A stretch of DNA of 52,126 bases, from assembly GCA_023475105.1 (NCBI GenBank), contig JAMCWJ010000008.1:1-52126 (forward strand). The letters run 5' to 3'. The stretch's first letter is position 1, and the number at the start of each line of letters is the position of its first letter. A model generated the notes under the pieces. The model worked only from the letters and a program-made list of their open reading frames with translations, ran no database searches and was not told the origin of the DNA. Source of the stretch: Nitrospirota bacterium. GTDB lineage: Bacteria; Nitrospirota; Thermodesulfovibrionia; Thermodesulfovibrionales; UBA9159. A program made the position numbers and the translations under genes. Below, in pieces: positions 42,048 to 52,126 of the stretch.

Positions 42048-43199
42048 TTACTTTTTTATGAGGATGTCCAACAGAGCTTGAGAGGCGAATAATTTGTTCC
42101 GTCGTTTCCCGGTCACTTCTTTAAGAATTCCCAAGTCTTGCAGCTTTATAACACCACCCTTCAAACTGTTGAATGAAGCATCCCATTTTCTTGTCAATAC
42201 TGAAATAGAGACAACGGGACTGGTGAATATTTCATCTAATAATTTATGTACGATTTCCGGAACTCTTCTGGCCTTGTTGATACGCTGAGAATATTCGTCA
42301 TGGAGGGCAAGTATTTTTTTTGCGTTATCTAAAGCATCGTTAGCCATATTAACGACCCCACGAAGAAAAAATTCAATCCATCCTTTCCAATCCCCGGTCT
42401 TACTTGCTGCAAGCAATCGTGCGTAATAATCATCTCTATATTTTTCGAAGAATTCAGAAAGATAAAGAAGAGGTTGGCTAAGACTTCCTTTCTGACAGAG
42501 GAAAAGTGTAATGAGAAGCCGTCCAATGCGACCATTTCCGTCAATGAATGGGTGTATTGCTTCAAATTGGTAGTGCAGCAAGGATGCTTGAATTAAGATA
42601 GGTTCTTTCGGTTCCGAATTGATATACTTTTCCCAATCTGACAGGGAGGCGTTCATCTCTTCTACAGGTGGCGGAATAAATGTTGCCTCGTTAAGCGTAC
42701 AGCCAGGCGGACCTATCCAGTTCTGGCTTCTGCGTAATTCACCTGGGGTGCCATGCTCGCCACGCACTCCTTTCATCAAAATCTTGTGCAATTCACAAAT
42801 TAGTCTGGTAGAAATAGGTAGTTTTTCAAGGAGAGCGATGCCTTGAATCATGGACTGAACATAATTATATACTTCTTTGACGTCTAGTATTTTGGGAATT
42901 TTCATTTCAGATGCCTCATAGAAAAATAAGTCACTTAAAGAAGACTGAGTGCCTTCAATTTTTGAACTTGATACGGCTTCGCGACGAATATAAGGAGAAA
43001 TTAAAAGAAAGGGATTCTTAAGTAACCTTCCTATGCCGGATAGCTCGCCCAATAATCTATCAGCATCTGAAAGAAGTCTAATAAGGCGATCGTCATATTC
43101 TATTATTGGCGGAAGGGGATTGGGAACAAATGCGCAATAATCCCTTAACGTTCTTACACACCTTCCGGCCGGTGATCTTTCAAAATCTTTAGGGTTCAA
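42048..43199 (-). CDS. Fic-domain protein with N-terminal inhibitory motif (first copy)
   Basis: 383 aa. The catalytic loop HPFIDGNGRIGR (residues 216-227, His216) is complete, so AMP transfer is expected. The inhibitory helix motif (SSKIEG, 78-83) blocks ATP binding in class II Fic proteins. The C-terminal 100 residues resemble a winged helix (VVSISVLTRKWDASFNSLKG then GVIKLQDLGILKEV), so it may also bind DNA. A periodic operator-like array lies directly upstream (43234-43339). Lower GC than the glucan genes suggests horizontal acquisition. Confidence 0.9.
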   Translation of the reverse strand: MNPKDFERSPAGRCVRTLRDYCAFVPNPLPPIIEYDDRLIRLLSDADRLLGELSGIGRLLKNPFLLISPYIRREAVSSSKIEGTQSSLSDLFFYEASEMKIPKILDVKEVYNYVQSMIQGIALLEKLPISTRLICELHKILMKGVRGEHGTPGELRRSQNWIGPPGCTLNEATFIPPPVEEMNASLSDWEKYINSEPKEPILIQASLLHYQFEAIHPFIDGNGRIGRLLITLFLCQKGSLSQPLLYLSEFFEKYRDDYYARLLAASKTGDWKGWIEFFLRGVVNMANDALDNAKKILALHDEYSQRINKARRVPEIVHKLLDEIFTSPVVSISVLTRKWDASFNSLKGGVIKLQDLGILKEVTGKRRNKLFASQALLDILIKK

Positions 43200-44350: not shown

Positions 44351-44395
44351 TGGCGGGATCGTGTGGAATCGAACCCACACACGCTCTTTGCAACT
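44351..44395 (-). other. tRNA 3'-end-like remnant
   Basis: Minus strand: GTGTGTGGGTTCGATTCC, then ACACGATCCCGCCA. A T-arm (TGTGG/CCACA around a TTCGAT loop) and a terminal CCA are recognisable, but there is no D arm, anticodon arm or 5' acceptor strand. Such 3' fragments are left by integrases that use tRNA genes. Between here and the IS256 copy (about 300 bp) no gene was recognised. Confidence 0.4.
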
Positions 44396-44694
44396 CATTG
44401 AACTATAAAAATAATTATATCAACCAAAAATCATCGTTGACGGTCTGTTGACGATTTCCTCTTGGCCGCTTTTATATTAACAACCTCTGCAGGTTTTTTC
44501 AATGACAGCTTTGAGATGGCTATCCTCTTATTCTCTATGCCCCTCTGTGGAGGGATAGTCAAGCTGGTTAATAGAAAGGCAAAATGGAGAGGTTATGTCG
44601 GCGAATGTAAAGAATATCCTGAAGGACATATTTTTTCTTTTGATTTTATTTCGCTAAAAGGCGAAAGATTAAGATAATTTGTGACTCTTAACTG

Positions 44695-46017
44695 AAAAGT
44701 GTCGATAAGGAGTTTTTGATGGGACATATAGAAGAGATTTCGTTCATCCCTCCGAAAACAGGCCTTGAGGAAATGCGATGTTTCTGCCGAGAAGCAACCC
44801 AGATGGCTGAGTAGCATTCAACTGCAATTTCACATAGCGCTCGTTTCGCAACTCACTTGGAGGAGGAGCTTTGCTGCATCCGTCCTCAGTCTCACCGAGC
44901 TGAACGGGGGCTCAACCACATTCGTTGTCCTGAGGTGCGGCCAGTGTTCCTTCGGGAATGAGTAGAACGTGACCATTCTATCCCAATCAGCGAGGAGTTT
45001 CTCTGTCGCCTTTGAATAATCATTCCGGTAGCGTGCAACGAATGCATCCCGACGGCGCTCACACTCTGCAAGCGTTTCCGCATAGGGAAGCTGTTTGAGC
45101 TGTTTTGCGGCCTCAGCACGTAGCCTCTTAGGGAAACAGTCAAGTACGTTCCTGATCTTATGGTTCCAGCACCGCTGCTCTTTCCCTTCGGCATGGAGTT
45201 CCCCGAGTGCCGACCATATTCCAAGATGACCATCGGCAATCGTAAGTCTGCCAAGCCTCAGGCCACGCCCTGTCAGGCCCCTCAGAACACCGCTCCAGGA
45301 CTCCTTGCTCTCCCGATATCCGCTGTCGCAGGCAAGGAATACCTTCTTGCCGTTGGTGAGCGCTCCGATAATCACCAGAAGCGCCGCCTTGTCTTTCTCA
45401 AGGCCAGCCTTCACATAGATGCCATCTGCCCACTGATAGACCACCTCAAGGGATGAGAGATCCTGGCGCTTCCACTCCTCATACTCAAGCTGCCATTTCG
45501 CCTTCAGCCGTTCTATCGAGGAAGCTGACAATGGCGCTCCTTCTCCCAATAAACCACGAAGCGCCATATCGAAGTCACCTTTGGCCAGACCGTGTAAATA
45601 CAGTTCCGGCAGCAATTGACCAACTTCTTTCGAGCGGCGCTTGAAAAAAGGAATTATCTTGCTTTCGAACCGCTCCTCCGTCCCCCTTACACGAGGACGC
45701 CGCACGGTGATCGTCCCGCTCATAATGCTGAATTTCTTCGGCTTGCCGTGGCCGTTCCTATACCCGCCAGTGCTATCAACCATCTTGAGTCTTTCAGACT
45801 TCCTCCTTCCGAGAAATGTTTCGACTTCATCCTCCAGAATGCTCTGAATGTATTCCTGCATCTTTCCTCGAACCATCTCCTCCAATACCTCATACGTCGC
45901 TCTTGACGGTCTTGCCGTCTCAGTGATACCCTTTCTCATGGTGGTGTCTCCTTCCTTTCGTTGATTTCCAGGTCAACCTAAAAGGATACACCGCCTGTTA
46001 TCTATTTACACACTTTT
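44695..46017 (-). mobile_element. IS256-family insertion sequence, decayed
   Basis: Candidate inverted ends AAAAGTGT at 44695-44702 (plus) and 46010-46017 (minus) enclose an IS256-type transposase gene. The right side cuts a KAP NTPase gene. No target-site duplication was found, and the transposase C-terminus is degraded, so the element is probably immobile. The ends were judged by eye and are approximate. Confidence 0.65.
44830..45939 (-). CDS. IS256-family transposase, C-terminus altered
   Basis: 369 aa with a good ribosome binding site (GGAAGGAG). Typical blocks: VEDEVETFLGR-like N-terminus, GYRNGHGKPKKFSIMSGTIT, PELYLHGLAKGDFDMALRGL, YQWADGIYVKAGLE (first Asp), LTIADGHLGIWSAL (second Asp), RCWNHKIRNVLDCFPKRL and HLRTTNVVEPPFSSVRLRTD. 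After this the normal C-terminal stretch (about 40-50 residues) is lost: the frame ends LLLQVSCETSAM and pieces of the lost end appear in other frames downstream. Probably inactive. Confidence 0.85.
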   Translation of the reverse strand: MRKGITETARPSRATYEVLEEMVRGKMQEYIQSILEDEVETFLGRRKSERLKMVDSTGGYRNGHGKPKKFSIMSGTITVRRPRVRGTEERFESKIIPFFKRRSKEVGQLLPELYLHGLAKGDFDMALRGLLGEGAPLSASSIERLKAKWQLEYEEWKRQDLSSLEVVYQWADGIYVKAGLEKDKAALLVIIGALTNGKKVFLACDSGYRESKESWSGVLRGLTGRGLRLGRLTIADGHLGIWSALGELHAEGKEQRCWNHKIRNVLDCFPKRLRAEAAKQLKQLPYAETLAECERRRDAFVARYRNDYSKATEKLLADWDRMVTFYSFPKEHWPHLRTTNVVEPPFSSVRLRTDAAKLLLQVSCETSAM

Positions 46018-46323
46018 TGATTGTACCTCAATGAGCCCCTCGGTGAGCTTGGCAAGGATTGCATGGATAAGCGCAGATTGGGCCTCATCACGGCCCTCAT
46101 ACTTCCATGCATTAAACCAGAGCGTGCGTACCTTGTTAGCGTCCTTCTTCTGATCCAAACGATACCTGAGCATTGTCATGAGGCTTGTCTTACCACTTCC
46201 CCATGCCCCAAAAATGCCAAGCGTAAGGGGAGCCAATTCTTGCTGAGTGCAGATGCCGGCCGGGACATCCACATAGCTTGAATATCCAAGACAATCATAT
46301 AGTGTTTCTTTATCTGACCACAT
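46006..46323 (-). pseudogene. KAP family P-loop NTPase, truncated by the insertion sequence
   Basis: 105 aa from the ATG at 46323 (AGGAGG upstream). It shows the KAP N-terminus: LGIFGAWGSGKTSLMTMLRY (Walker A), then VRTLWFNAWKYEGRDEAQSA. The frame then enters the IS end and stops; KAP proteins are normally several hundred residues longer, and the rest was not found across the IS. KAP NTPases are membrane-associated ATPases often linked to phage exclusion. Non-functional here. Confidence 0.75.
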
Positions 46324-46362
46324 ATTATCGTCCTCCTTCTGATGCAGCCACGGCACTCCCTT

Positions 46363-46482
46363 TCATTTTCCCTTTTTACTCCCTTCCGCCTCTATCTCCT
46401 CAATCGTCGGTAGACTGCTCATTTCTGCCACAGCTTGCGGCAGAAATCTTATCAACGTATTTGTTCGTGATAAGATAATCAC
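46363..46482 (-). CDS. Possible 39-aa gene or gene remnant between Fic and KAP genes
   Basis: From the GTG at 46482 the minus strand reads MIILSRTNTLIRFLPQAVAE, then MSSLPTIEEIEAEGSKKGK. The same frame stays open upstream into the end of the Fic gene (KNRHVDVIIL), suggesting the C-terminus of a lost larger protein or a fused frame. No ribosome binding site and no recognised family. Confidence 0.3.
   Translation of the reverse strand: MIILSRTNTLIRFLPQAVAEMSSLPTIEEIEAEGSKKGK
46421..46482. promoter_or_regulatory. Inverted repeats upstream of the KAP gene
   Basis: ATTTCTGCC/GGCAGAAAT (46421-46429 and 46439-46447) form a perfect 9-bp hairpin. Next come CTTATCA (46448-46454) and TGATAAG (46468-46474), a perfect 7-bp pair, and GTGATAAGATAATCAC (46467-46482). 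The TTATCA/TGATAA half sites also occur at the XRE promoter (51300-51400). Confidence 0.4.
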
Positions 46483-46519
46483 ATCAACATGTCTGTTTTT
46501 CGCTATCCTACCCTCTTTA

Positions 46520-47581
46520 TTACCCTCTTTTAGTGGTATTACCTCTTTTCCTCCAAAGGGCCCCCGGACCTCGCCCGATACATTCCACTTTTTTGATGCT
46601 CTGCAGTTCCCTAAGCACCCTGCGAATCATATCTCTGCTGACACCGGGGCATGCCCGTTCAAGCTCGGATAATGTGAACTCCTTCGAAAAAGAATCAACG
46701 GCAGCCCTTATCAGCTCGGTCTTAGCACCTCTTGGTGACCGCAATTGTCCGACCCTCTCCTCAAATTCTTTGTAAGCGGTCTTGAGTGTATAAAGTACAT
46801 AATTTATATAAGGCCACGGATCATGCTTCGCATCGTGCCAGCGTTGTGAGCTTTGTTCAAGGGTCTCATAATACCGGTCTTTGCTTTGTTCGATGATCCT
46901 CTCGATGCTTACATAGCGGCCTGCCTCGTAGCCAAGATGATAGCACTGAAGCAGGAGAAGCAGCCGCGAAACTCTGCCGTTGCCGTCCCGGAAGGGATGA
47001 ATGGAGAGAAAGTCGAGATTGAAAGCGGCCATAGCAACCAAGGGATGAACCCACCGTTCGCGCAGGCACTGATTCCATAGGTCAATCAGTTCAGCCATAA
47101 ATGCCGGTGTCTTGGCGGGTGAAACAGTTCTGAAACGCACACGCGAAGTCCCGTCTGGATACTTCTCGATGATATCGCTTTCTTTCTCTTTGTATTTACC
47201 GGCATCCCACATGTCGCCCTTTGCCAGTTTATGCAGTCTCAGGATTGTATCCTTCGATACCGGAAGCTTTGCCCCCTGCTCATGTATTAGTTTCAGCGCA
47301 TTGCGATACCCACGGACTTCTTCTTCATCACGGTCCCGTAAATGTGACTTGCCGAACACTATGGTGGCAACGCGGGCCTGATCGACCTCTACCCCTTCAA
47401 TCCGAGTCGATGAAACTGCACTCTCTATCAGAGCATGTTCTTTGAGAACCTTGAGCTTCTGAGGAGATTGTTTTGTGAATAGTTCCTGCCTGCCGCGTGC
47501 TTCTCCCAAGTCTGACAGATACCAGGACGTTATGGACGGCACGGTTTCAGGTTTGTGCGAGAATTGCCGAAGTGTCATCAT
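46520..47581 (-). CDS. Fic-domain protein (second copy), coupled to the helicase
   Basis: 353 aa. Catalytic motif HPFRDGNGRVSR (195-206, His195) and the inhibitory SSTRIEG (57-63) are intact. The C-terminal 80 residues resemble a helix-turn-helix (FTLSELERACPGVSRDMIRR, VLRELQSIKKVECIGRGPGA). Its ATG overlaps the helicase stop (ATGA), so the two proteins are made from one message. It is not close in sequence to the Fic protein at 42048. Fic enzymes attach AMP to target proteins; the target here might be a partner of the helicase. Confidence 0.9.
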   Translation of the reverse strand: MMTLRQFSHKPETVPSITSWYLSDLGEARGRQELFTKQSPQKLKVLKEHALIESAVSSTRIEGVEVDQARVATIVFGKSHLRDRDEEEVRGYRNALKLIHEQGAKLPVSKDTILRLHKLAKGDMWDAGKYKEKESDIIEKYPDGTSRVRFRTVSPAKTPAFMAELIDLWNQCLRERWVHPLVAMAAFNLDFLSIHPFRDGNGRVSRLLLLLQCYHLGYEAGRYVSIERIIEQSKDRYYETLEQSSQRWHDAKHDPWPYINYVLYTLKTAYKEFEERVGQLRSPRGAKTELIRAAVDSFSKEFTLSELERACPGVSRDMIRRVLRELQSIKKVECIGRGPGALWRKRGNTTKRG

Positions 47582-50500
47582 TTCTGCTCCCCCCCATACA
47601 AGTCTTGATTCTCTTTCACCTGCATCGGCTGGGTCATCGCATCCACTGAGAGATAGTAATGCGCAACCTTGGTAACTTCATTCCACGCAAACCTGGCAGG
47701 ATCTTTGATAGGCTCCTGCAGTTGCGGCTCGATTTTGCAACTGGTAACGACATAAAGCCAATAGCATTCCCTACGGTCTTCTGCAACGCGCCGTTCATTC
47801 GGTGTAAGAAGAATAGTCCCGGTAGCATCGCTGAGCCCTTTGACCTCAATGAGACGCAGTTCACCGGAACTCAGATCAAGACTGGTAATGTCATATCCAA
47901 GGTTCTTTTCATGCACGTCGTAAACCTGGCGACCCTCCTTCTGCTCATGTTCCATGACAACCTTCATGGCGACGGCCTCGGTTTCGAAATCAGGACGCAA
48001 TCTCCGTATGGCAGGATTTTCCCGCTCCGGGTGGGGCAGTATGAGCACGCTTGTAATGCGTTCCACCGCCTGAAGCGAGAGCGAACGCTGACGCTCAAGA
48101 TCCTGCCTGCGTCTGTCGCGGCGACTCAAGAGCTCTGAATGGCGGGCTTCTGCCTGAGCAAGGCGTCCTTCGGCACCGGTGACTTTCTGTTCCACTTCGG
48201 CGGCCGCCCTACCTATCTCCTCGTCAGTCTTCTGGAGAAGTTCTGTCAGGGATAATTCTACATGAGAAGCCACACGTTCAACTTCAGCAAGCCGCTCAGA
48301 GCGCGTTTCCTCAAGAAAGGGCTTCAATGCACTATCGTTGAGCCACTCACCCACTTCCGGTAACACGGTCACAGAAGAGGTCATTTCCTCAGTCTCGGCG
48401 GGAGTGAGGTTGCCGAGCACGCTTGGATCCACAAGCCGAGGCTCTCCTTTCTCCGTGATCTCAGCAGCAAAGAGCCGTTTGTGAATCACTTGGCCGAGAC
48501 CATCTACTACCCTGCCGCGGTAAAAATCAAGGCGCGCAGCGGAATCATGCTGAAGTGAGTAAAAACAGGCGCCTTTGCTAAAGACCTCCTGAGAGCGGGA
48601 ATAAGCCTCCCTTCTTACCGCTTCGAAAAGCGGATGCCCCGGAGTTACCCATTCAAGATTGTCCTTTTCAGCCGTCTCGCGGTCTGTGGAGCAGCGGGGG
48701 TACTTGTTGGCAAGGGCAGGAAGTTTCCAGTCCGGCTGAGACTCATAGCGCCTGAGGGCTGAAGGCGTCTTTCCCGGGTCGAAGGTATGAGGCAGGCCCG
48801 CTATGAACTTAACGGTCAAAGGCACATATTCCGAAGCGTCTTTCATGAACCGTGCTATGGTTTCAGGGACAACTCTCCTCTCCTGGGCCTTGGCCCTGCG
48901 TTCAATAAGCATCTCAAGGTTGAGCTTCTTGGAAGCAAGGCCTTCGAGCGCATTCTGGCAGATTGCCCGGAATTGGGTCTCATCAACGTTCTTGAGAAGC
49001 CGCTCCTCAAGGTCCTGGTCTCCGAGCTTTCCGGCGTAATAATCCCGGAGAACCCTCTCCACATGAGCCGCGGGCAGGACCTCGCCAACCACGTTAAACA
49101 CCGCGTCGTCGTCAAGGGCGTCCCTTATCTCCTGCAGTTTCTCAAGCAGTCTCCGGAGGACGCGTCCCTCAATCGTGTTCGTCGCTGCAAAGTTGAAAAT
49201 GAGACAGTCTTTTCTCTGGCCGTAACGGTGAATCCTTCCCATGCGATGTTCAAGGCGATTCGGGTTCCAGGGGATATCATAGTTGAAGAGAATATTACAA
49301 TATTGAAGGTTAATTCCTTCTCCTGCTGCCTCTGTAGCAACAAGGATCTGGATATCCCCCTCTTTAAACTGCTGCTCCGCATAGAGCCGAGTTCCGGGTT
49401 CCTCGCGGGACCCTGGTTTCATGCCCCCGTGAATGCAACCGACCCGAAATCCCCACGCCTTAAGACAGTTTAGGAGGTAATCAAGTGTGTCTTTAAACTC
49501 AGTGAAGATCAGAAGCCTTTTTTCAGGGTGATCGAAAAAACCCTCTTTGTGCAGCAGATCTTTAAGGCGGGAAAGCTTTGCCTCAGCGCCGGCGTCCTCG
49601 ACAGCCTGCGCCTGAAGCGCAGGACGTTTGAGCTCCTCTATCTCTTCACGGACCTGTTCCGCGTTGCCCGCGAGCGTGATCGCCTCAAGCGTCTCTTCCA
49701 GACGCTCGCGTTCTGCTTCCTCCATCTCTTCAAGTTCTTCCGGTGACGGAAGATCAGGCGGCGCAAGCCTGCACAGTTCCTCTGCCCTCTTCAGCCCTTC
49801 AGCTAGACGTTTCGCACGGTTCTGAAGGGAATGACGCATGGCATAGGTGCTCGATGCAAGCCGACGCTGGTACAGAGACATTAAGAAGCCAATTGCGCGC
49901 GCTCTAGGATCGTCACCCTGGGCCGCAGCCCTTGCGCTTTGCTGCTTAACAAACCTTGTGATGTCCCTATAGAGGTCGAATTCCGGACCGTCTATCTGAA
50001 AATCAACGGTATGGGGGATTCTCTTCGTAAATATCTTCTCCGCAACCCATGTTCCATCGGGACGCCGCTCTGGGAAATAGACCATCGCCTCTTTTGTTCG
50101 CCGCAGATAGAACGGTGCTCGGCGATTGTCCATCGCCGCTCGTATCGATCTCACATCAGCATAGGCGTCGGCATCGAGAAGCTGCAGAAAGAGACTGAAA
50201 TTCACGGGATCACCTTTGTGTGGGGTAGCGGTCAACAGGAGCTGGTGGTCGGATGTATCTCTTAACAATTCCCCAAGGGCGTATCGGGCTGTTTTGCGGG
50301 CAGGCGGTGTCCATGACATGCGATGTGCCTCATCCACGATGACCAAATCCCACTGGACCTGGCGCAATCCCGGCAGCATCTCAGTGCGCTTGGCAAGATC
50401 GAGGGAAGTAATGACGGTCTTCTGTTCCATCCATTGGTTTACGCCGAATTGCTCGCGGATATCCTGCCCCTTGAGGACGAGGAACTTCTCATCGAATTTT

Positions 50501-51015
50501 TCCTTCAGCTCGCGTTGCCACTGGAATGCGAGGTTAGCTGGACAGACGATCAGGATTCTCTCTGCCAAGCCTCTGAGCTTGAGCTCGCGGATAAGGAGCC
50601 CTGCCATGATCGTCTTTCCGGCCCCTGCATCGTCGGCCAGGAGAAAACGGACGCGGGCGAGCTTAAGCAGGTAATCATAGACCGCTTCAAGCTGGTGAGG
50701 CAGCGGGTCAACGCGAGAAATGGAAAGGCCGAAGTAAGGGTCGAACTCATAGGGGATTCCGAGTGAATATGCCTGAATGCCCAGGCGGAGAAGAGCACCG
50801 TCCCCCTTGTATGTGAACTTCGAGTCGATGACCGTGATGGAATTAAGGTCCTGTGTTGTAAGAGTTACTTTCCTGAATCGTTCTGTTTGCGTCCCCACGA
50901 GGCCGACAACCCACGTGTTCGGCCCATTTGCCCGTACGGTCTCGACACGCATGGGCTCATTGAAGAGTGAACCGACAAGTATCTGACCTTCTTTGAAGGG
51001 TTGACCTTCACTCAT
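47578..51015 (-). CDS. SNF2-type helicase with C-terminal DUF3883 domain
   Basis: 1145 aa. Motor blocks: HQLEAVYDYLLKLARVRFLL, Walker A DAGAGKT (129-135), DEAH (228-231), TATPHKG (262-268), and in the second RecA-like domain IFTEFKDTLDYLL, ATEAAGEGINLQYCNILFNY and RMGRIHRYGQ. A long coiled-coil middle (LEEMEEAERERLEETLEAIT; later GRLAQAEARHSELLSRRDRR) leads to DUF3883 at about 1030-1120 (NLGYDITSLDLSSGELRLIE then VKG), a nuclease-like fold. It resembles DISARM DrmD-type helicases. It is the second gene of the XRE-helicase-Fic cluster; no methyltransferase is visible, but one could lie outside the window. Confidence 0.88.
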   Translation of the reverse strand: MSEGQPFKEGQILVGSLFNEPMRVETVRANGPNTWVVGLVGTQTERFRKVTLTTQDLNSITVIDSKFTYKGDGALLRLGIQAYSLGIPYEFDPYFGLSISRVDPLPHQLEAVYDYLLKLARVRFLLADDAGAGKTIMAGLLIRELKLRGLAERILIVCPANLAFQWQRELKEKFDEKFLVLKGQDIREQFGVNQWMEQKTVITSLDLAKRTEMLPGLRQVQWDLVIVDEAHRMSWTPPARKTARYALGELLRDTSDHQLLLTATPHKGDPVNFSLFLQLLDADAYADVRSIRAAMDNRRAPFYLRRTKEAMVYFPERRPDGTWVAEKIFTKRIPHTVDFQIDGPEFDLYRDITRFVKQQSARAAAQGDDPRARAIGFLMSLYQRRLASSTYAMRHSLQNRAKRLAEGLKRAEELCRLAPPDLPSPEELEEMEEAERERLEETLEAITLAGNAEQVREEIEELKRPALQAQAVEDAGAEAKLSRLKDLLHKEGFFDHPEKRLLIFTEFKDTLDYLLNCLKAWGFRVGCIHGGMKPGSREEPGTRLYAEQQFKEGDIQILVATEAAGEGINLQYCNILFNYDIPWNPNRLEHRMGRIHRYGQRKDCLIFNFAATNTIEGRVLRRLLEKLQEIRDALDDDAVFNVVGEVLPAAHVERVLRDYYAGKLGDQDLEERLLKNVDETQFRAICQNALEGLASKKLNLEMLIERRAKAQERRVVPETIARFMKDASEYVPLTVKFIAGLPHTFDPGKTPSALRRYESQPDWKLPALANKYPRCSTDRETAEKDNLEWVTPGHPLFEAVRREAYSRSQEVFSKGACFYSLQHDSAARLDFYRGRVVDGLGQVIHKRLFAAEITEKGEPRLVDPSVLGNLTPAETEEMTSSVTVLPEVGEWLNDSALKPFLEETRSERLAEVERVASHVELSLTELLQKTDEEIGRAAAEVEQKVTGAEGRLAQAEARHSELLSRRDRRRQDLERQRSLSLQAVERITSVLILPHPERENPAIRRLRPDFETEAVAMKVVMEHEQKEGRQVYDVHEKNLGYDITSLDLSSGELRLIEVKGLSDATGTILLTPNERRVAEDRRECYWLYVVTSCKIEPQLQEPIKDPARFAWNEVTKVAHYYLSVDAMTQPMQVKENQDLYGGEQK

Positions 51016-51030
51016 TCAGATGACCCCGGA

Positions 51031-51264
51031 TCATAATCGTTGATCATCTTTAATCAGCGTCAATAAGTCATTCGGCTGACAGTTAAAATAAATGAGAAGT
51101 TTTTCGAGATCCTTCCTACTGAAATTATAATTGTGGTTCGTTGCCATCCTGGACAAGGTAAGCGCCTTAACGCCAGTCTCCTGCTCAATGACCTTGAGAG
51201 TGATTCGCCGTTTCTCTATGGCGCTCTTCCGTTCAATTGAGGCTTTCAAATTAACAATTAGCAT
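51031..51264 (-). CDS. XRE/Cro-type DNA-binding regulator
   Basis: 77 aa from the ATG at 51264, preceded by GGAAGGGG. The sequence (MLIVNLKASIERKSAIEKRR then ITLKVIEQETGVKALTLSRM) is a small Cro/C1-type helix-turn-helix; the tail (KDLEKLLIYFNCQPNDLLTL) is the usual dimer helix with the CQPNDLL block. It is the first gene of the cluster, 15 nt before the helicase, and probably represses it through sites at 51300-51400. Confidence 0.82.
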   Translation of the reverse strand: MLIVNLKASIERKSAIEKRRITLKVIEQETGVKALTLSRMATNHNYNFSRKDLEKLLIYFNCQPNDLLTLIKDDQRL

Positions 51265-51299
51265 TTGAACCCCTTCCAAAGTCTTTCAATGCCAAAATG

Positions 51300-51400
51300 T
51301 TATCACTAAGAGATAGCAAATCGCAACAAAAAAGAAAAAGCATCACGAAAAGACTTGACAAGCATATCACAAAAGGGGGATAACTATCATATGGTGATAA
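51300..51400. promoter_or_regulatory. Candidate operators at the XRE promoter
   Basis: TTATCAC (51300-51306), ATATCAC (51364-51370) and GTGATAA (51394-51400); the last forms TATCA-TATGG-TGATA (51385-51399), a perfect inverted repeat. TTGACA at 51355-51360 is a possible plus-strand -35. The region lies between the divergent XRE and 51461 genes, so one regulator could control both. Confidence 0.45.
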
Positions 51401-51460
51401 TTAACATATCCAAAAGATTGCATGGTAGCATCGCATGATAACAAGAGAGGGAGGTGGAAC

Positions 51461-51673
51461 ATGTTTGTCAAGAAGGAAGATTTCAGCTGCGTTGAGGGTC
51501 TTTATAAAAGCCTTGATCAGGAAGAAAGGAAGAAGTTCCTCAGTATCCTCGTTAAACAGGCGGGTAAGAGGGCAGGAGAGGATGTCGGTAGGTCCCGTTG
51601 GGGGATACGGCAGCAGGACAGTAAGGCAGCAATAAAAAAGTGGTGCCTGCTTCCCCTCACCTCAGCGGTTTGA
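51461..51673 (+). CDS. Small protein, unknown, divergent from the XRE operon
   Basis: 70 aa from the ATG at 51461 with GGGAGGTGG upstream. It reads MFVKKEDFSCVEGLYKSLDQ, then EERKKFLSILVKQAGKRAGE: helical and basic, resembling the N-terminal part of a larger protein. No family was recognised. It may be truncated; the 3' portion after residue 50 (IKKWCLLPLTSAV) looks non-native. Confidence 0.45.
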   Translation: MFVKKEDFSCVEGLYKSLDQEERKKFLSILVKQAGKRAGEDVGRSRWGIRQQDSKAAIKKWCLLPLTSAV

Positions 51674-52126
51674 ACATCTTAGAGACATACAGCTTGAGAC
51701 TCTTACGTCTGTACTCTACGTCCTACGACCTTAAAACCTTTCGGCTGAGTCCAAGAGGAGCAAGACCACCACTTTGGTGAGCCACTCTTCACTTTCCTTG
51801 TACTCCTGTTTTGGGTTGTTGTCAAGAAGTTTTTGATGGAGGATGGGGAGAGATATAAAACTTCACTTTTTCTTCCCAGTAACTTCGATATTCTTTTCGC
51901 CTTTCTCTAATCCTCTTCTTTTTTAGTTTGATGATCTCCCTTTTGAACAAATTGGGCGAAATCTGCATTCTGCTTGTCATTGAGTTACAGACATGGAAGT
52001 GTTGTTTTTCGGAATAACCTAACGCTGTTGGCCCTGAATTAATCGTAATCGACTGACCCTATCGAAGCCCTTCCCGGATTAAAATACCCTAAAAAAGAAA
52101 GGACCGGGAGCGGGAAGGCCCGACGT
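51674..52126. other. 453-bp stretch at the right edge without recognised gene
   Basis: AT-rich toward the end. A 52-aa minus frame (51822-51980, Lys/Arg-rich, no ribosome binding site) was seen but is not convincing. An imperfect inverted repeat around CCTTCCCGG and CGGGAGCGGGAAGG lies at 52069-52118. Confidence 0.3.

What the first reader, a model, noticed from the sequence alone, without database searches (positions are those of the whole stretch)
46006..51673. XRE regulator / SNF2-DUF3883 helicase / Fic operon: candidate defence system
Three minus-strand genes are tightly linked: XRE (stop 15 nt before the helicase start), an 1145-aa SNF2-DUF3883 helicase, and a Fic protein whose start overlaps the helicase stop (ATGA). 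A KAP P-loop NTPase follows but is broken by an IS. The helicase resembles DrmD of DISARM, yet the usual methyltransferase and DrmA/B/C are not seen. A Fic enzyme translationally coupled to a nucleic-acid motor suggests a sensor-effector pair: the helicase recognises foreign DNA and the Fic protein AMPylates a host target. The neighbourhood (tRNAs, IS, second Fic) is typical of accessory islands.
Basis: partly seen in the sequence, partly recalled or inferred. Interest (0 to 1): 0.7.

Follow-up and report, generated by a model that had tools for sequence, protein, structure and literature searches.

The report
Broken phage-defence operon with Fic cargo
A bacterial genome fragment holds the helicase gene of a known, predicted phage-defence system (Hma) with a Fic enzyme gene overlapping its end, but the system's DNA-methylating and ATPase genes are not found in the genome assembly, so this copy is likely a decayed remnant, while related loci carry Fic as one of several alternative genes at that place.

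Summary
In detail: XRE, 1145-aa SNF2-DUF3883 helicase, Fic (ATGA overlap), a cut KAP gene, an IS256 transposase. The helicase is HmaA (PADLOC 549 bits; DrmD 381, below the NCBIfam DrmD cut-off), the predicted helicase-nuclease of Hma (type-1 BREX-related). Among 80 related loci the DUF1156 methyltransferase HmaB lies downstream in 44 of 46 with 6 kb or more of flank, and in all 8 Fic-bearing loci with 3 kb or more. Neither HmaB nor HmaC is found in the window's genome, and the operon is cut at KAP/IS256, so this copy is likely decayed. Fic is one of several cargo genes behind HmaA (12 of 67 loci). The overlap is not Fic-specific (28 of 59 loci without Fic have one). Fic joined HmaA repeatedly and mostly lives elsewhere. 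HmaA has its own predicted nuclease domain, so Fic is at most a backup effector (inferred). New points: Fic as slot cargo (not mentioned in the main text of the 2026 effector catalogue), copies of the HmaA 3' end downstream (13 of 73 loci), and a conserved palindromic element behind Fic.

The parts
51031..51279 (-). small XRE-type (HTH_26) regulator gene, 82 aa from the TTG start; 15 nt upstream of hmaA
   Evidence: an 84% identical copy lies before an AbiEi-Fic-helicase operon in another genome of the phylum (L156); tblastn at E up to 0.1 finds no other in 115 loci
47578..51015 (-). hmaA: SNF2 helicase with C-terminal DUF3883/NOV_C domain (predicted PD-(D/E)XK nuclease), 1145 aa, frame intact
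   Evidence: HmaA 548.8 bits; DrmD below cut-off; GAGKT, DEAH, D1042, E1057, K1059 invariant in 76 of 76 aligned proteins
46520..47581 (-). fic: Fic/Fido protein, 353 aa, HPFRDGNGR at 195, STRIEG at 58, 4-nt ATGA overlap with hmaA
   Evidence: (nearest solved chain by sequence 8uqu_A, 318.6 bits)
46446..46480 (-). conserved palindromic element about 40 nt behind the fic stop (GATAATCNNATCACGAAN9TGATAAGAT, 1 mismatch here)
46006..46356 (-). 5' fragment of a KAP P-loop NTPase gene (QatA-like, about 106 residues of a family of roughly 620-690); more likely start ATG after AAGGAGG at about 46323
44830..45939 (-). IS256-family transposase gene, C-terminus apparently cut (profile 2-318 of 338); no clear pair of terminal inverted repeats

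Best explanation
The operon is likely the surviving front part of an Hma (type-1 BREX-related) locus, hmaA with a fic gene in the cargo slot behind it, whose methyltransferase and ATPase genes are not found in the genome assembly and were likely lost at the KAP/IS256 break. In intact relatives the order is hmaA, cargo, hmaB, (cargo), hmaC (shown). There HmaB is predicted to mark self DNA, HmaC to assemble the scanning complex, and HmaA to translocate and cut unmarked DNA (from the literature, not tested here). Fic is inferred to be a backup effector: held off by its own inhibitory helix, it would AMPylate a host target when restriction fails or is blocked, as Sofic is reported to do in abortive infection. 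In the window HmaA would have nothing to direct it, so the copy is likely inert as a restriction system; the Fic protein may still be active.
For: HmaA is the best PADLOC model, 548.8 bits over residues 12-1091, against 381.3 for DrmD. NCBIfam DrmD scores 349.6 against a cut-off of 610. HmaB/DUF1156 and HmaC/DUF499 are named on one representative each. HmaB downstream in 44 of 46 loci with at least 6 kb and HmaC in 36 of 46. All 8 Fic-bearing loci with at least 3 kb downstream have HmaB. DUF1156 and DUF499 absent in G000 but found in 5 of 5 Hma-positive genomes given as controls. KAP cut and transposase C-terminus cut. Putative nuclease residues invariant in 76 of 76. Of 34 Fic frames read, HPFx(D/E)GNGR is complete in 32, L164 has one substitution, L169 is a fragment that lacks it; S(N/T/S)R(I/L)EG is in all 34.
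Against: The genome is 91.8% complete in 114 contigs, so HmaB/HmaC could lie in an unassembled gap. A KAP gene like this one was not found behind Fic in any other Hma locus, so what the break removed is inferred. hmaA and fic frames are intact, which would fit continued use. No AMPylation target, toxicity or regulation was tested. 2 of 46 HmaA loci (L024, L053) also lack a downstream HmaB.
Confidence: 0.7

Rival explanations
1. A working methyltransferase-free sensor-effector pair: HmaA senses foreign DNA and switches on Fic, which AMPylates a host target.
For: Intact frames and ATGA overlap. In 9 of 12 Fic-bearing loci Fic itself starts in the 4-nt overlap, against 28 of 59 other loci with any overlapping frame of 150 codons or more.
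Against: All 8 Fic-bearing loci with enough flank keep HmaB. Most HmaA loci have no such Fic (55 of 67), and in Nitrospirota close HmaA and close Fic share only the window's genome. HmaA has its own predicted nuclease. HmaC is not found in this genome and the operon is broken.
Confidence: 0.1
2. Fic is a passenger: a self-standing, mobile Fic (toxin-antitoxin-like) gene that lodges in operons without working with them.
For: The same Fic subfamily sits beside an EPSP synthase gene (L153, L154) or a flagellar gene (L161), beside type I and type III restriction genes (L170, L166) and in Eco57I-methylase loci with a distant helicase (L155, L156, L171). On the Fic tree the Hma-linked label needs 6 changes, at least 3 forced by starred branches.
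Against: It recurs in one slot, same strand, at or near the helicase stop: 12 of 67 loci and none at that strength in 509 kb of upstream flank. Other genes identified in the slot are defence-type genes.
Confidence: 0.25
3. Fic regulates the system by AMPylating HmaA or HmaC, acting as a brake rather than as an effector.
For: Translational coupling to hmaA would fit a fixed ratio.
Against: HmaA occurs beside many unrelated cargo genes, so it does not need Fic as a brake. No direct evidence.
Confidence: 0.1
4. The locus is complete in the cell and only the assembly is broken: hmaB and hmaC lie in a gap or the contig is chimeric at the IS.
For: Draft genome, 91.8% complete, 114 contigs; the window ends in a repeat found in four other contigs.
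Against: The contig runs on through the IS into tRNA and other genes. Neither gene is found in the assembly while controls ring.
Confidence: 0.15

Closest known systems
Hma (helicase, methylase, ATPase; PADLOC) = type-1 BREX-related (DUF499-centred) system
   Same: The helicase is its HmaA by sequence, and the gene order in relatives is the Hma set with a cargo slot.
   Different: HmaB and HmaC are not found here, and a Fic gene sits in the slot. Fic, Fido and AMPyl do not occur in the main text of the 2026 effector catalogue PMC12839542 (supplements not seen).
DISARM (DrmD helicase)
   Same: SNF2 helicase of the same broad family (381 bits PADLOC).
   Different: NCBIfam DrmD cut-off not reached (349.6 of 610); HmaA matches far better; relatives' neighbours are DUF1156 and DUF499 genes.
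Sofic / SoFic AMPylator
   Same: Fic domain and catalytic motif; inhibitory motif of the recalled class-II type. Sofic acts in abortive phage defence (abstract of PMC12249575).
   Different: A different subfamily: 51.5 bits against the NCBIfam SoFic cut-off of 550. The window's other Fic is nearer to SoFic (PADLOC 399.7 bits) but also under that cut-off (181.6).
Accessory effectors of BREX and BREX-related loci (OLD-TOPRIM, Schlafen and others)
   Same: OLD-TOPRIM and Schlafen/HATPase genes are seen here in the same slot.
   Different: Fic is a predicted protein-modifying enzyme, not a nuclease; the published catalogue covers nucleases (sections 28, 29 and part 1 of section 35 read).
Qat (QatA KAP NTPase)
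   Same: The cut KAP gene matches the QatA N-terminus (79.2 bits).
   Different: Only profile positions 2-93 of 628; QatB, C and D were not searched for.

Membership tests
Hma / type-1 BREX-related system | HmaA: SNF2 helicase with C-terminal PD-(D/E)XK nuclease domain | tested here: met
   PADLOC HmaA 548.8 bits, residues 12-1091 of 1145; NOV_C domain; D1042, E1057, K1059 invariant in 76 of 76. Nuclease activity itself not testable here.
Hma / type-1 BREX-related system | HmaB: DUF1156 DNA methyltransferase | tested here: not met
   None in 12.6 kb downstream nor in the held genome, while 5 of 5 Hma-positive genomes ring
Hma / type-1 BREX-related system | HmaC: DUF499 AAA ATPase | tested here: not met
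   controls 5 of 5
DISARM | DrmD helicase at family cut-off | tested here: not met
   349.6 bits against 610; HmaA is the better model
DISARM | DrmA, DrmB, DrmC and a methyltransferase in the locus | not tested
   Not searched for genome-wide; the three-gene operon does not contain them
Fic protein adenylyltransferase | HPFx(D/E)GNGR catalytic motif | tested here: met
   HPFRDGNGR from His195; motif definition recalled
Fic protein adenylyltransferase | AMP transfer to a protein | not testable with these tools
   needs an enzyme assay
SoFic family | NCBIfam SoFic cut-off | tested here: not met
   51.5 bits against 550 for the operon's Fic
Qat system | full-length QatA | tested here: not met
   QatA profile positions 2-93 of 628 only
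Qat system | QatB, QatC and QatD | not tested
   not searched for

The most novel reading that the evidence does not exclude
Hma (type-1 BREX-related) loci carry a dedicated exchangeable effector slot directly behind hmaA. Cargo enters by recombination that duplicates the hmaA 3' end, and a protein-modifying effector class, AMPylating Fic enzymes, has been recruited into it at least three times as a translationally coupled backup effector. A conserved palindromic element behind fic marks or controls this cargo.
Probability: 0.35. Interest if true: 0.62.

Novelty: new variant of a known kind. Interest (0 to 1): 0.4.

Why it matters
It turns a likely misreading (a DISARM-like or stand-alone helicase-Fic system) into an incomplete Hma locus. 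It adds Fic enzymes to the accessory genes seen in Hma loci, beyond the nuclease list in the main text of the 2026 catalogue. The duplicated HmaA 3' ends offer a testable account of how such loci swap effectors: one recurring junction, with scars that can be counted in any genome collection.

Tried and rejected
DISARM membership was rejected. An exclusive helicase-Fic pair was rejected. ATGA coupling as evidence for a special pair was weakened by the same overlap in loci without Fic. XRE as a conserved part was rejected: tblastn (E up to 0.1) found one copy in 115 loci, L156, which is not a close HmaA locus; upstream of hmaA, by eye, some loci have an excisionase-like HTH. KAP as a regular Hma gene was rejected: no match of 40 bits or more at the other loci except 29% far upstream in L088. 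Reading the palindromic element as a short coding ORF was rejected by eye, because third codon positions are conserved and the spacer is hypervariable. The element as a general cassette end stays open: 7 of 11 sites in Nitrospirota lie behind Fic, 1 behind a DUF4062-HATPase_c_4 gene, 3 elsewhere. An exact-pattern scan of viral contigs found none. RNA folding of five copies gave modest z-scores of -1.6 to -2.5. Promoter scan, structure prediction and fold search were not run. Contexts of the nearest helicases (91%) and Fics (87-88%) could not be read (no metagenome scans). Matching of longest-contig lengths typed (119 values each, one of 120 rows in each having none) gave one shared contig besides the window's, P0032/P0204, taken as a pair on length alone.

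Rows dropped: 9 of 80 loci with under 500 nt downstream or a helicase running off the contig were left out of the overlap count, 13 with under 1100 nt from the Fic count. Partial Fics L168 and L169 were left out of the trees. One search used only full-length single-match proteins: 73 helicases, 35 HmaB and 25 HmaC of 81 sequences (80 loci and the window), same-strand hits only; one search used 76 of 81. The first tree set 14 Hma-linked Fics from many phyla (two, the window's and L186, from Nitrospirota) against 18 others from Nitrospirota only, so the nesting of the window's Fic may partly reflect sampling. Cargo counts rest on one query per type; some Schlafen-query hits share only the HATPase_c_4 part, as L186 shows.
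Full report
What is there. The three minus-strand genes and the 4-nt ATGA overlap are as described. Pfam gives SNF2, Helicase_C and NOV_C (DUF3883) for the helicase, Fic for the 353-aa protein, HTH_26 for the 82-aa protein, KAP for the 116-aa fragment and a Mutator-type (IS256) transposase behind it. The host is taken as Nitrospirota because a genome of the same order, G387, holds a 37,733-base contig whose length and HmaB and HmaC genes (100%) match the public Nitrospirae record JACRHC010000123.1.

What the helicase is. Against PADLOC the best model is HmaA (548.8 bits, residues 12-1091), well ahead of DrmD (381.3) and BrxH (354.9). The NCBIfam DrmD model scores 349.6 against a cut-off of 610. 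The family is widespread and conserved: the best 120 of 7,966 hits are all at 78% identity or more, and the 80 named loci span many phyla. GAGKT, DEAH and D1042 / E1057-x-K1059 of the C-terminal domain are invariant in 76 of 76 aligned proteins. PMC12839542 (section 29) describes this C-terminal domain as an active PD-(D/E)XK nuclease of type-1 BREX-related systems, its name for Hma; assigning D/E/K as the catalytic residues is recalled.

The normal neighbourhood. 80 loci (the best 80 of 273 confirmed) were fetched with up to 10 kb flanks. Neighbour clusters were built and representatives named by HMM: HmaB (DUF1156 methyltransferase) and HmaC (DUF499 ATPase). HmaB lies downstream on the same strand in 44 of 46 loci with at least 6 kb of downstream sequence (exceptions L024, L053) and HmaC in 36 of 46. 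A cargo slot lies between hmaA and hmaB. Genes identified there include Schlafen AlbA_2-HATPase_c_4, UvrD, OLD-TOPRIM and PHP-SMC types, PRTase-CE, DUF3800 and DUF3644-endonuclease types, and Fic. A TIR protein lies between HmaB and HmaC in L172. In 55 loci with at least 3 kb downstream, tblastn hits before HmaB (or with no HmaB seen) are 13 for the Schlafen/HATPase query, 4 UvrD, 4 OLD and 3 PHP-SMC.

Fic in the slot. A Fic gene of this subfamily (at least 200 bits) lies within 1.3 kb behind hmaA in 12 of 67 loci with at least 1.1 kb downstream, and none in 509 kb of upstream flank. All 8 of these with at least 3 kb downstream also have HmaB; the other four contigs end within 2.9 kb. Fic itself starts in the 4-nt overlap in 9 of 12; L049 has a 412-aa gene in between; L021 and L070 differ. 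Of 59 loci without Fic, 28 have some other frame of at least 150 codons in the same overlap, so coupling belongs to the slot and not to Fic alone. Of 34 Fic frames read (Hma-linked and other), 31 have HPFxDGNGR, L157 has E for D, L164 has HPFRDGNSR, and L169 is a fragment without the motif; S(N/T/S)R(I/L)EG is in all 34.

Fic elsewhere. In 395 Nitrospirota genomes, close HmaA (at least 64% identity in the listed matches, partial ones included) occurs in 20 and close Fic in 21, with only the window's own genome in both (counted from the tables). With a looser Fic (46%), G008 has Fic behind a broken HmaA (L186). Of the 20 non-HmaA Fic loci fetched (L152-L171), I annotated part. In restriction-type operons: type I (L170) and type III (L166), an N6_N4 methylase neighbour (L158; L165 only below cut-off), and an Eco57I methylase with a distant helicase (L155, L156, L171). 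Beside housekeeping genes: EPSP synthase (L153, L154) and a flagellar gene (L161). A tree of 32 Fics needs 6 changes between Hma-linked and other, at least 3 forced by starred branches; the window's Fic nests with seven Fics not beside HmaA (97/92). A wider quick tree of 71 rows gave 8 and 3, with no starred set holding the window's Fic. So Fic entered or left the slot repeatedly, with the sampling caveat given under Tried and rejected.

Why this copy looks decayed. The KAP match ends after about 106 residues while 9 of its 12 best relatives lie in frames of 623-687 aa, and the IS256 transposase lacks its C-terminus. No HmaB or HmaC is found in the 12.6 kb beyond or in the held genome. The same family searches ring in 5 of 5 Hma-positive Nitrospirota genomes and in Thermotoga maritima among 14 controls. 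The assembly is 91.8% complete, so absence is strong but not final. That the IS took part in the loss is inferred.

How it likely works. PMC12839542 (sections 28, 29) proposes that the methyltransferase marks self DNA, the DUF499 ATPase builds the scanning complex and the helicase-nuclease cuts; it cites an experimental study for antiphage activity of the helicase (PMC11232893, not held, not read). PMC8565338 (passages) named Hma as a new candidate system, with 1,638 instances and presence in 26 phyla. PMC7641849 (passages) saw the same operon earlier in archaea. My added step, inferred only: Fic is a backup effector that modifies a host protein when restriction is defeated, by analogy with Sofic (abstract of PMC12249575) and with the OLD and Schlafen accessory genes (part 1 of section 35 of PMC12839542).

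What may be new. The main text of PMC12839542 has no occurrence of Fic, Fido or AMPyl; PMC8565338 and PMC7641849 have none of Fic. Library searches pairing Fic with restriction, DISARM, BREX or hsd terms (titles and abstract starts only, 20 of 38, 15 of 52, 2 of 2 and 7 of 7 listed) showed no title on this pairing; two listed papers hold both Fic and hsd gene names and were not opened. Supplements were not read and most subscription papers are not held.

Scars of cargo exchange. The last 100 residues of each locus's own HmaA find same-strand copies 0.6 to 4.1 kb downstream in 13 of 73 loci (E at most 1e-4); the first 100 and two middle stretches find none downstream of 73; upstream there are 2 loci for the C-terminus and 1 for a middle stretch. 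HmaB C-termini recur downstream in 2 of 35 loci; the HmaC search gave none. This is what single-crossover insertion of DNA carrying an hmaA 3' end plus a new cargo gene would leave (inferred). The window has no such copy.

A conserved element. Behind fic (window 46446-46480) lies GATAATCNNATCACGAAN9TGATAAGAT. In 390 Nitrospirota genomes there are 12 matches (up to 2 mismatches) at 11 sites in 10 genomes, and 0 for the reversed control. Seven sites lie directly behind a Fic gene, one behind a DUF4062-HATPase_c_4 gene of the same G008 locus, and three elsewhere: beside type I restriction genes in G328 and G324, and near a DUF4143 ATPase in G389. Most Fic genes of the phylum lack it (48 genomes have a Fic at E up to 1e-40; 7 have the element behind one). 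It also lies behind Fic in L031, L061 and L078, and in L015 behind hmaA and behind a Fic 3' remnant. Its role is unknown.

Verdict. The window itself is an incomplete remnant of a known system; the general pattern (Fic as slot cargo, repeated recruitment, 3'-end scars) is the part worth following.

Noticed in passing
46446-46480 minus; also L015, L031, L061, L078, L158, L186 and others: Conserved palindromic element with a hypervariable 8-9 nt spacer, often directly behind Fic genes; 11 sites in 10 of 390 Nitrospirota genomes, 0 for the reversed control.
   Followed up: partly
L017, L020, L024, L026, L031, L032, L038, L046, L051, L059, L070, L074, L082: Decayed copies of the hmaA 3' end downstream of hmaA in 13 of 73 loci, none downstream for other parts of the gene.
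   Followed up: partly
42048-43199 minus; L015:21831-23012: The second Fic matches PADLOC SoFic (399.7 bits; below the NCBIfam cut-off); in L015 a 67% relative lies just behind a complete Hma locus and a Fic 3' remnant.
   Followed up: partly
G000 contig C35:3-359 (L207): C-terminal part of a second Fic of the operon's subfamily, cut by a contig end; DNA 76% like window 46427-46679.
   Followed up: partly
52000-52126: The window's right end is a repeat that also lies at contigs C72, C2, C42 and C29, so the contig likely ends at a multi-copy element upstream of the XRE gene.
   Followed up: no
51031-51279; L156:7713-7934: The XRE gene has an 84% identical copy at the head of an XRE-AbiEi-Fic-helicase-ATPase-Eco57I-methylase gene row in another genome of the phylum.
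   Followed up: partly
44355-44400: By eye, a tRNA 3'-half-like sequence next to the tRNA-Pro gene, not called by ARAGORN; possibly an old attachment site.
   Followed up: no
51626-51825: Stretch upstream of the operon 85% identical to G000 contig C67:665-863; nature unknown.
   Followed up: no
just behind Fic stops in many of the loci: Repeated GGGTAATA-like motifs at and just behind the Fic stop codon across phyla, seen by eye.
   Followed up: no
L186 (G008 contig C87): Another broken Hma locus: hmaA in pieces, Fic behind it and a DUF4062-HATPase_c_4 gene further on, no HmaB match in the 15,950-base contig.
   Followed up: partly
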